A stretch of 58,186 bases of DNA, from positions 45,517 to 103,702 of the forward strand of contig JADGBZ010000002.1 in the NCBI GenBank assembly GCA_015231175.1, given 5' to 3'. The position numbers and the translations under genes are program-made. Position 1 is the first letter of the stretch; the number at the start of each line of letters is the position of its first letter. Shown here piece by piece: positions 3,831 through 58,186 of the stretch. Below the pieces are notes generated by a model. That model had not been told where the DNA came from. It made no database searches and was given only the letters and a program-made list of their open reading frames with translations. This DNA comes from Magnetococcales bacterium. Its GTDB lineage: Bacteria; Pseudomonadota; Magnetococcia; Magnetococcales; DC0425bin3.

Positions 3831-3968
3831 GTCACCCTTGCAAGAAAAGTCTGGACAGGAAAGCCTTTGTCAGGGCTTCGCCCCGAACCTCACCATGGCG
3901 CTGCCATGGACAAAGCCGGGGAGCCAGCCCACTGGACCCCGATTCGTTGCCGGGTGCTGAATGGCTAC
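3831..3968 (-). repeat. Dispersed hairpin-rich repeat, copy 1
   Basis: 138 bp. It shares a core (AAGCCTTTGTCAGGGCTTCG, then CACC.GGGCGCTGCCCTGG-like, then GGAGCCAGCCC.CTGGACC) with copies elsewhere in the window. Three short hairpins can form. The right end reads GGGTGCTGAATGGCTAC, one base from the family end GTGCTGAAT.GTTAC; the left end is GTCACCC. It lies between the prophage remnant and cusA. Confidence 0.8.
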
Positions 3969-7223: not shown

Positions 7224-7414
7224 CTTCTAAACGTAACCATGCACCACCCGGCCACGAATCGGGGTCCAGGGGGCTGGCTCCCTGGCTTGGTTCAGGGCGT
7301 TGCCCTGGCGGGGTTCGGGGCGAAGCCCTGACAAAGGCTTTCATGTCCAGGATTTTCTGGAAGGGGCGATGAGTGGTTACGGTCTGGGGGTCTTTGAACA
7401 ATTACCTTCTAAAC
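7224..7414 (-). mobile_element. MITE-like repeat, copy 2, with perfect 9-bp target duplication
   Basis: The element spans 7233-7405 (173 bp), starts GTAACC and ends AATTAC. It is flanked on both sides by the identical 9-mer CTTCTAAAC (7224-7232 and 7406-7414). Inside are the family hairpins CCAGGG..CCCTGG, CAGGGC-GTT-GCCCTG and GGGC-GAA-GCCC, and the conserved GACAAAGGCTTTCATGTCC. There is no coding capacity for a transposase, so mobility would need one in trans. It sits inside the cus operon between the lipoprotein gene and cusA. Confidence 0.8.
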
Positions 7415-7419
7415 AAACA

Positions 7420-7716
7420 TCATGGCCGTTCCTGATGTTGAGGTATTGAGCGGGATTTGGACTCGGGGGCATCTTCAGCGGTGTTTTTTTCTGTGTGTTG
7501 AGGTGTTTTGCGGGATTTGGACTCGGGGGCATCTTCAGCGGTGTTTTTTTCTGTTTTATTTTGTTGGTTGTTGTGCGTGTCGCCCATCCCAGACATGATC
7601 GGCATCATGATCGGCATCATCACGGGGCAACCCGATGTCAGCAACCCCAGAACAGCGAGCAGCAGCAGACGGGACACCAGAGTGAAACGAGGATGCTTTT
7701 TGACGATATCAGGCAT
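7420..7716 (-). CDS. Small Met-rich lipoprotein in the cus operon
   Basis: 98 aa from the ATG at 7716; a longer frame starts at 7743 but overlaps cusB. A basic N-terminus and hydrophobic helix end in a lipobox LLTSGC (cleavage before Cys), predicting an outer- or inner-membrane lipoprotein facing the periplasm. Directly after the Cys comes CPVMMPIMMPIMSGMGD, seven methionines within 17 residues, a pattern suited to Cu(I)/Ag(I) binding. The tail is a hydrophilic tandem repeat (KTEKNTAEDAPESKSRKTPQ-like, two 20-residue units). It could serve like the CusF metallochaperone or a metal sponge; this role is inferred from context only. I know no named family. Confidence 0.65.
   Translation of the reverse strand: MPDIVKKHPRFTLVSRLLLLAVLGLLTSGCPVMMPIMMPIMSGMGDTHNNQQNKTEKNTAEDAPESKSRKTPQHTEKNTAEDAPESKSRSIPQHQERP
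7441..7554. repeat. 60-bp direct tandem repeat within the lipoprotein gene
   Basis: Bases 7441-7500 and 7501-7554 are nearly identical with a period of exactly 60 bp, so the coding frame is kept and a 20-residue unit (TEKNTAEDAPESKSR...) is doubled in the protein. Confidence 0.9.
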
Positions 7717-11155: not shown

Positions 11156-11236
11156 CGAGGACGGCGCCCCGGTGGGGTCCGGGGCGAAGCCCTGACAAAG
11201 GCTTTCATGTCCAGGTTTTTCTTGAAAGGGCGCCGA
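11156..11236 (-). repeat. Dispersed repeat, partial copy 3
   Basis: About 80 bp containing GGTGGGGTCCGGGGCGAAGC, CCTGACAAAGGCTTTCATGT and TTTTTCTTGAAAGGGCGCCG. The half with the CCAGGG hairpin and both terminal inverted repeats are missing. Confidence 0.75.
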
Positions 11237-23982: not shown

Positions 23983-24148
23983 TCAATCTTCGTAACCATT
24001 CAGCATCCGGCAAGGAACCGGGACTCAGGGGGCCGACTCCCCGACAGGGCCTCAGACAGCGTTCTGGTGGGGTTCGGGGCGAGGCCCTGACAAAGGCTTT
24101 CATGTCCAGATTTTTCTTGAAATGGTGCCGAATCGTTACCAATCTTTC
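23983..24148 (-). mobile_element. MITE-like repeat, copy 4, with near-perfect target duplication
   Basis: The element 23992-24139 (148 bp) begins GTAACCATTCAGCATCC and ends GGTGCCGAATCGTTAC, so the ends are inverted copies of each other. Flanks are CAATCTTC (left) and CAATCTTTC (right), equal except for one T. The interior has the usual core, ending in GACAAAGGCTTTCATGTCC. It lies directly upstream of the PilZ gene. Confidence 0.75.
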
Positions 24149-25435: not shown

Positions 25436-25535
25436 AGGATTGAAAAACTGGGATGGAGGTCCAGGAGGAAGGGCTGTGCCCTTCCTCCTGGTGGGGTTCG
25501 GGGCGAAGCCCCGACAAAGGCTTTCATATCAACCT
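25436..25535 (-). repeat. Dispersed repeat, variant copy 5
   Basis: Starts GGATTGAAAAACTGGGATGG, then a hairpin GGAGGAAGGGC..GCCCTTCCTCC, then GGTGGGGTTCGGGGCGAAGC and GACAAAGGCTTTCATATC. Same 3' core as the other copies but with a different 5' hairpin. It lies in the gap between the wecB and SIR2 genes. Confidence 0.75.
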
Positions 25536-25557: not shown

Positions 25558-25617
25558 CCATGGGGTTCGGGGCGAAGCCCTGACAAAGGCTTTCATGTCC
25601 AAGCTTTCCTATCCAAG
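25558..25617 (-). repeat. Dispersed repeat, partial copy 6
   Basis: A second, shorter copy of the 3' core (GGGGTTCGGGGCGAAGCC, then CTGACAAAGGCTTTCATGTC) just 23 bases after copy 5, and 40 bases before the stop codon of the SIR2 gene. Confidence 0.75.
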
Positions 25618-29386: not shown

Positions 29387-29403
29387 GGCAGCTCCTGTTT
29401 CTT

Positions 29404-29523
29404 CCAGAAAAGCCTGGATATGAAAGCCTTTGTCAGGGCTTCGCCCCGAACCCCACCAGGGCGCTGCCCTGGACAAAGCCAGGGAGCCAGCCCCCTGGAC
29501 CCCGATTGGTGGCTGGATCGTTC
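29404..29523 (+). repeat. Dispersed repeat, copy 7
   Basis: About 120 bp with the core TGAAAGCCTTTGTCAGGGCT, the hairpin CCAGGGCGCTGCCCTGG and AGGGAGCCAGCCCCCTGG. It fills the space between the SIR2 ribosome site and the stop codon of the radical SAM gene, which begins at 29524. Terminal inverted repeats are degraded. Confidence 0.8.
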
Positions 29524-32036: not shown

Positions 32037-32059
32037 ACGATGATTTCCTTGCAAAGAAA

Positions 32060-32184
32060 CGAATCGGGGTCCAGGGGGCTGGCTCCCTGGCAGGTCCAGG
32101 ACGGAGTCCTGGTGGGGTTCGGGGCGAAGCCCTGACAAAGGCTTTCATGTTCAAGCTTTTTTATAAAGGGTGCTGAATCATTAC
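32060..32184 (-). repeat. Dispersed repeat, copy 8
   Basis: 125 bp: GAATCGGGGTCCAGGGGGCT at one end and the intact terminal sequence GGGTGCTGAATCATTAC at the other, six bases from the stop codon of the radical SAM gene at 32191. Between them are the CCAGGG/CCCTGG hairpin and the GACAAAGGCTTTCATG core. Confidence 0.82.
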
Positions 32185-36485: not shown

Positions 36486-36580
36486 GTAAACAATCGTTGG
36501 CGTTTCCCGGCATGCCGCACTGGGCGTCTGACGAAGCCTTTCGTGTCCGGGTTTTTCCTGCAAGGGTGCTGAACAGTTAC
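36486..36580 (-). repeat. Dispersed repeat, degenerate copy 10
   Basis: Left end GTAAACAATCGTTGGCG, internal CTGACGAAGCCTTTCGTGTC, right end AAGGGTGCTGAACAGTTAC. The internal hairpins are lost. It immediately follows the stop codon of the receiver-GGDEF gene. Confidence 0.65.
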
Positions 36581-58081: not shown

Positions 58082-58116
58082 AGAAAATTTTAGCTCCATC
58101 TTTGTTTGTGACTTTC

Positions 58117-58186
58117 AGCACCCGGCAACGAATCGGGGTCCAGCAACTGTCTTGACTGTCAAGCAGTTTCTGCCAGGGGGGGTGTC
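58117..58186 (-). repeat. Dispersed repeat, copy at window end (partial)
   Basis: It begins with the family terminus CTTTCAGCACCCGGCAACGA and GGGGTCCAG, then a hairpin AACTGTCTTGA-CTG-TCAAGCAGTT, different from the usual one at this place. The rest lies outside the window. Confidence 0.7.

What the first reader, a model, noticed from the sequence alone, without database searches (positions are those of the whole stretch)
7224..7414. A MITE-like element family: terminal inverted repeats and a perfect 9-bp target duplication
The 173-bp copy at 7233-7405 has GTAAC at the left and ATTAC at the right end and is bounded by the identical 9-mer CTTCTAAAC on both sides. Its interior is built from three small hairpins with a conserved GACAAAGGCTTTCATGTCC. 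At least ten full or partial copies lie in this 58-kb window. Copies have no gene, so they would be moved by a transposase elsewhere. I know of no named element with this combination.
Basis: seen in the sequence. Interest (0 to 1): 0.75.

Follow-up and report, generated by a model that had tools for sequence, protein, structure and literature searches.

The report
High-copy MITE moved by IS66 elements
The repeat is a tiny gene-less jumping element, present in roughly 600 full or partial copies in this bacterium, whose ends and 8-base insertion scars match those of a known transposon group (IS66 family, ISBst12 type); it is a well-documented new example of a known kind rather than a new kind of element.

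Summary
7233-7405 is a 173-bp gene-less element with inverted ends and a perfect 9-bp flanking repeat, and about ten full or partial copies lie in the window. The typical family member is different: 147-148 bp, with the 17-bp terminal repeat GTAACTATTCA(G/C)CACCC and an 8-bp, not 9-bp, target duplication. Of 57 paired copies, 33 have a perfect 8-bp duplication (0.65 expected) and none a perfect 9-bp one. The window copy is an atypical variant with 25 extra bases at its right end. A nested copy gives a clean paralogous empty site. About 600 copies or fragments are estimated genome-wide, and eight of those read are identical.

The transposase source was found. It is a single-gene IS66-family (ISBst12-type) element with identical 17-bp ends in related genomes, and a TIR-plus-5'-tnpC remnant of it survives in this genome. 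The extra 25 bases match the end of a second IS66 element here, which has a near-perfect 8-bp duplication.

The same ends and 8-bp duplications flank unrelated MITE interiors in Lachnospiraceae and in a Campylobacterota-labelled MAG. The interior hairpin block is an order-wide repeat that also occurs without these ends. Verdict: a trans-mobilised IS66-family MITE, a new member of a known kind.

The parts
7233..7405 (+). The reported 173-bp MITE copy (148-bp unit plus 25-bp second right terminus)
   Evidence: Sequence; the same 173-bp form occurs at G000:C15 with a 7/8-bp duplication
7233..7249 (+). Left terminal inverted repeat GTAACCATGCACCACCC
   Evidence: Matches family TIR GTAACYRTTCASCACCC
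7364..7380 (-). Inner right terminal inverted repeat (GGGCGATGAGTGGTTAC), the usual family right end
   Evidence: Alignment with 30 genome copies
7381..7405 (-). 25-bp extra terminus (reads GTAATTGTTCAAAGACCCCCAGACC on the minus strand), about 20/25 identical to the left end of the IS66 element at G000:C1 (GTAGTCGTTCAGAGACCCCTGGACC)
   Evidence: identity counted by eye
7224..7232 (+). Left copy of the flanking direct repeat CTTCTAAAC (9 bp; family norm is 8)
7406..7414 (+). Right copy of the flanking direct repeat CTTCTAAAC
7330..7348 (+). Conserved core GACAAAGGCTTTCATGTCC
3833..3968 (-). Family copy (about 135 bp, one end degraded)
11158..11236 (+). Partial copy
23992..24139 (+). Full 148-bp copy with 7/8-bp flanking duplication
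25486..25530 (+). Partial copy
25561..25610 (+). Partial copy
29402..29516 (-). Partial copy
32059..32184 (+). Partial copy
36528..36580 (+). Degraded fragment; the ORF overlap listed was not examined further
58114..58143 (+). Short fragment of the left part, at the window edge

Best explanation
It is a high-copy MITE family of the IS66 insertion-sequence family (ISBst12-type, single transposase gene). A TnpC-type DDE transposase acting in trans recognises the 17-bp ends GTAACYRTTCASCACCC, moves the element and leaves an 8-bp target duplication. The interior is a hairpin-rich block that is common in this bacterial order and was probably captured between IS ends. The window copy is a composite that carries, on its right, the end of a second IS66 type. 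Shown: ends, 8-bp duplications, a nested-insertion empty site, identical ends on transposase-bearing elements in relatives, and a remnant of that element in this genome. Inferred: the actual trans-mobilisation and the capture event.
For: 33/57 paired copies have perfect 8-bp duplications and 39/57 have >=7/8; shuffled means are 0.65 and 1.16. 392 TIR ends with <=1 mismatch in the genome, against 1 for the reversed pattern. 30 exact full copies and about 600 copies or fragments extrapolated. Eight of the copies read with duplications are identical, and eight places match a 147-bp query at 100%. Nested insertion at C4:69564-69710: the flanks joined with one 8-mer removed align to a sibling copy over 122 bp without gaps. 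Cognate IS: G034:C154:1-1580 has GTAACTATTCACCACCC at both ends and a 502-aa IS66 transposase (NF033517 299.6 bits; PF03050 3e-47). Relatives with the same ends are in G003 and G039. In the own genome, C17:36886 has the same TIR followed by tnpC residues 19-90 at 78% identity, close to an assembly gap. A second IS66 in the own genome (C1; L063:3297-4995) has ends GTAGTCGTTCAGAGACC and GTAACCGTTCAGAGACC and flanks GTAGATTC/GTAGACTC; its homologue in G003 has a perfect ATCGATCC duplication. Published ISDge4 (ISBst12 group) has ends GTGACTACTCAGCA/GTAACTGCTCAGCA, an 8-bp duplication and a single 449-aa gene (PMC12898284).
Against: No complete transposase gene with exactly the MITE's ends was found in this assembly, only a 5' remnant beside a gap. 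The window copy itself has a 9-bp repeat. The MITE interior is not an internally deleted IS, so descent by simple deletion is not shown. No transposition was observed.
Confidence: 0.92

Rival explanations
1. A REP/BIME-like or ncRNA hairpin repeat spread by another route (for example a RAYT), with the flanking duplications being chance.
For: The interior hairpin block occurs without GTAAC ends across the order, copies are mostly between genes, and the hairpins keep pairing, with one position swapping G-C and A-T in about half of the copies.
Against: Perfect 8-bp duplications in 33/57 copies against 0.65 expected, a clean nested-insertion empty site, and 17-bp TIRs identical to those of an IS66 element.
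Confidence: 0.03
2. The element belongs to another IS family that makes 9-bp duplications (such as IS4/IS10 types or some IS256), as a perfect 9-bp flank would suggest.
For: The window copy has a perfect 9-bp flanking repeat.
Against: No perfect 9-bp duplication in 57 paired copies; 8 bp dominates. The same ends are carried by elements with IS66 transposases.
Confidence: 0.02
3. The hairpin-rich interior is a functional structured element (terminator, ncRNA or nucleoprotein site) that selection keeps, and the IS66 ends only disperse it.
For: The interior folds better than shuffles (z -2.9), and the unrelated Oribacterium interior far more so (z -12.1). One helix position shows G-C/A-T exchange in 13 against 14 copies.
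Against: The Campylobacterota-MAG MITE with the same ends has no stable interior (z -0.75). Covariation rests on few positions. No Rfam family was matched at its gathering threshold.
Confidence: 0.12

Closest known systems
ISDge4 (Deinococcus geothermalis), ISBst12 group of the IS66 family (PMC12898284)
   Same: Ends GTAACTGCTCAGCA and GTGACTACTCAGCA against GTAACTATTCAGCACCC here; 8-bp direct repeat; one transposase gene in the related autonomous elements
   Different: ISDge4 is an autonomous IS carrying a 449-aa transposase gene; the element here is a 147-bp gene-less derivative in a different lineage
IS66-family elements G034:C154:1-1580 and its homologues in G003 and G039 (found here)
   Same: Identical 17-bp terminal repeat GTAACTATTCA(C/G)CACCC (one end in G039 reads ...GCGCCC); transposase 83-89% identical among the three
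   Different: About 1.58 kb with a 465-502 aa gene and no hairpin block; not complete in the window's assembly
IS66-family element at G000:C1 (L063:3297-4995, 544-aa TnpC)
   Same: Its terminal 25 bp match the extra right end of the window copy; flanks are 7/8-bp duplicates
   Different: TIR continues GTAACCGTTCAGAGACCCC rather than ...CACCC; transposase only about 23-24% identical to the cognate one
Prokaryotic MITEs in general (review PMC10969869; MITEPsy1, PMC3189936)
   Same: Under 300 bp, TIRs, direct repeats, no gene, presumed trans-mobilisation
   Different: Much higher copy number (about 600 copies or fragments estimated) than MITEPsy1, and IS66-type ends

Membership tests
MITE | Short (<300-500 bp), no transposase gene | tested here: met
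   147-148 bp typical; no gene
MITE | Terminal inverted repeats shared with an autonomous element | tested here: met
   17-bp TIR identical at both ends of the IS66 element in G034 and in the G000 remnant
MITE | Constant-length target duplications on insertion | tested here: met
   33/57 perfect 8 bp, none perfect at 9; nested empty site
MITE | Multiple copies at unrelated sites | tested here: met
   392 TIR ends; 30 exact full copies; about 600 copies or fragments
MITE | Mobilised in trans by the partner transposase | not testable with these tools
   Needs a transposition assay
IS66 family (ISBst12 group) | 8-bp target duplication | tested here: met
   also the autonomous copies
IS66 family (ISBst12 group) | Ends beginning GTAA, close to published ISBst12-group ends | tested here: met
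   GTAACTATTCA.. against ISDge4 GTAACTGCTCAGCA
IS66 family (ISBst12 group) | Partner encodes an IS66 transposase and no TnpA/TnpB | tested here: met
   The 1580-bp element of G034 holds a single long ORF (502 aa, NF033517, PF03050) between its ends; absence of TnpA/TnpB rests on element size, no separate search made
IS66 family (ISBst12 group) | Complete partner copy in the same genome | tested here: inconclusive
   Only the 5' end with intact TIR, close to an assembly gap, at C17:36886
REP/BIME-type repeat | No TIR-delimited target duplication | tested here: not met
   Clear 8-bp duplications
REP/BIME-type repeat | RAYT partner gene in the genome | not tested
   No search for a RAYT was made

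The most novel reading that the evidence does not exclude
Single-gene IS66 (ISBst12-type) transposases act across phyla on one nearly invariant 17-bp end, and MITE families with that end have arisen repeatedly by capturing local, often hairpin-rich sequence between IS ends rather than by internal deletion of an IS. This would make the ISBst12 type a general machine for turning host repeats into mobile elements.
Probability: 0.25. Interest if true: 0.55.

Novelty: new member of a known kind. Interest (0 to 1): 0.36.

Why it matters
It gives a fully anchored example of IS66-family MITEs, a group for which no described MITE turned up in the papers searched here, at an unusually high copy number for a bacterium. 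It includes a matching autonomous element, empty sites and a cross-phylum set of elements with the same 17-bp ends. It also corrects the target duplication to 8 bp and shows how a composite copy with a second IS end can mislead a reader about boundaries.

Tried and rejected
The 9-bp duplication as a family trait was rejected. The two IS66 hits in the own genome were first taken as the only candidates; their ends match only GTAACCGTTCA, so the better partner was sought and found in relatives and as a remnant. A fully clean orthologous empty site for the window copy was not obtained. In the same-genus genome G002 the gap between the two aligned efflux-gene stretches is 31 bp against 588 bp here, so the MITE is absent there, but about 400 bp of other sequence is absent too. 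At C3:86131 the G002 orthologue also lacks the two MITE copies, but at about 67-74% identity the junction cannot be read base by base. In the Oribacterium MAG no IS66 element with GTAAC ends was found, so its partner is unknown. Rfam gave no match at its gathering threshold; the microRNA-like hits are below it and reflect simple long hairpins. Structure-dependent transposition was considered and set low, because the Campylobacterota-MAG MITE has the same ends but no stable interior.

Full report
Observation. The sequence at 7224-7414 is as described: CTTCTAAAC, then GTAACC...CAATTAC, then CTTCTAAAC again. The core GACAAAGGCTTTCATGTCC occurs 9 times in the window with up to 3 mismatches, against 0.02 expected. 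BLAST finds about ten full or partial copies in the window.

The family in the genome. The window lies in a 3.81-Mb assembly of 175 contigs. Aligning the best copies shows a unit of 147-148 bp with a 17-bp inverted repeat, GTAACTATTCA(C/G)CACCC / GGGTG(G/C)TGAATAGTTAC. The genome has 392 such ends with at most one mismatch, against 1 for the reversed control pattern. There are 30 full copies with exact ends. In 198 kb of stretches (the window plus seven 20-kb stretches of other contigs) there are 32 copies or fragments, which extrapolates to about 600 in the genome; a few of the seven stretches were placed near known copies, so this is a rough figure, but the 681-699 first-look candidates are of the same order. 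Among the copies with duplications, eight are identical, and eight places match the same 147 bp at 100%, which points to recent spread.

Target duplication. In 57 TIR-paired copies, 33 have a perfect 8-bp direct repeat exactly at the GTAA/TTAC ends and 39 have at least 7 of 8. Re-pairing the flanks at random gives means of 0.65 and 1.16. No copy has a perfect 9-bp repeat in register. The 9-bp repeat of the window copy is therefore an exception: either one 9-bp event, or an 8-bp duplication with one extra C at the right junction.

Empty sites. The copy at C4:69564-69710 sits inside another family copy. Joining its flanks with one 8-mer removed gives a sequence that aligns to a sibling copy over 122 bp without gaps. 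At C3:86131 the same-genus genome G002 lacks the two copies found here. At the window site, the aligned stretches of the two efflux genes are separated by 31 bp in G002 and 588 bp here, so the MITE is absent there, but so is other sequence.

The window copy is a composite. Its first 148 bp (7233-7380) are the ordinary unit. The last 25 bp, read on the minus strand, are GTAATTGTTCAAAGACCCCCAGACC. This resembles the left end of an IS66 element in the same genome, GTAGTCGTTCAGAGACCCCTGGACC (L063:3297). A similar 173-bp form at C15 has a 7/8-bp duplication, and a 158-bp relative at C80 has a perfect CATTTTTT duplication, so copies with the extra end also moved as units.

The transposase. The own genome has two IS66-family hits. 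The one at C1 (L063:3297-4995) encodes a 544-aa transposase, has ends GTAGTCGTTCAGAGACCCC and GTAACCGTTCAGAGACCCC, and has flanks GTAGATTC/GTAGACTC. Its homologue in G003 (71% identical protein) has a perfect ATCGATCC duplication. Elements whose ends are identical to the MITE's occur in relatives. G034:C154:1-1580 has GTAACTATTCACCACCC at both ends and one 502-aa IS66 transposase (NF033517; PF03050). G003 and G039 carry homologues with 83-89% identical proteins. In the window's own genome, C17:36886 has the same 17-bp end followed by the start of this transposase (residues 19-90, 78% identity), close to a run of N. So the cognate IS is or was present here.

Cross-phylum recurrence. A scan of 84,980 species genomes for the paired ends, with exact 17-bp ends 100-130 bp apart, found 38 stretches in Oribacterium and other Lachnospiraceae or Clostridia-type MAGs and in a MAG labelled Helicobacter cetorum; own-species records may be left out of that list. 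These 142-164 bp elements mostly have perfect 8-bp duplications but unrelated interiors. The taxonomic labels of the MAGs were not checked.

The interior. The hairpin block (GGGGTCCAGGGGGCTGGCTCCCTGG...GGGGCGAAGCCC) occurs in related genomes in quite different flanks without GTAAC ends. It therefore looks like an order-wide repeat captured between IS66 ends. It folds better than shuffles (z -2.9). The Oribacterium interior does so strongly (z -12.1) and the Campylobacterota-MAG one does not (z -0.75). A stable interior is thus not a general requirement. Paired positions are kept in 98% of cells, with one clear G-C/A-T exchange inside a hairpin; this is weak evidence for selection on structure.

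Comparison with the literature. ISDge4, placed in the ISBst12 group of IS66, has ends GTGACTACTCAGCA/GTAACTGCTCAGCA, an 8-bp direct repeat and one 449-aa gene (PMC12898284). Classical IS66 ends begin GTAAGCG with 8-bp repeats (PMC11946415). In the searches made, no paper turned up that describes an IS66-family MITE (in the papers opened, IS66 is not linked to a MITE). Only open-licence papers are held, so this is not proof of absence.

Mechanism. Shown: defined ends, fixed-length duplications, insertion into a pre-existing copy, and identical ends on IS66 transposase elements. Inferred: that the ISBst12-type TnpC binds these ends and moves the MITE in trans, and that the interior was captured rather than left by deletion of an IS.

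Noticed in passing
window 7430-7560: A tandem duplication of about 60 bp (GCGGGATTTGGACTCGGGGGCATCTTCAGCGGTGTTTTTTTCTG twice) next to the MITE, between CusA-like and CusB-like efflux genes; together with the MITE it lies in a stretch of 588 bp that is only 31 bp in the same-genus genome.
   Followed up: partly
L028/L070 (G000:C3:3899-4199) and L027/L065 (G000:C4:36720-37020): Pairs of full copies head to tail separated by 7 bp; at C3 the same ATATTTC lies before, between and after the two copies, suggesting tandem insertion or unequal crossing-over.
   Followed up: no
G001, G020, G036 loci L274-L293: The GC-rich triple-hairpin block is repeated many times in other genomes of the order in different flanks without GTAAC ends; in G036 it lies in a longer unit beginning GGCTCAACCGAGCTGAT. 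Its own means of spread is unknown.
   Followed up: partly
L123-L160: IS66-end MITEs of 142-164 bp with 8-bp duplications in Oribacterium and other Lachnospiraceae MAGs and in a MAG labelled Helicobacter cetorum; no partner IS with these ends was found in the Oribacterium MAG.
   Followed up: partly
L029, L254, L268, L270: A second subfamily shares the core but continues as CCAGGAGGAAGGGCGCAGCCCTTCCTCCTGGACCTCCATCCCAGTTTTTC, with a different right side.
   Followed up: no
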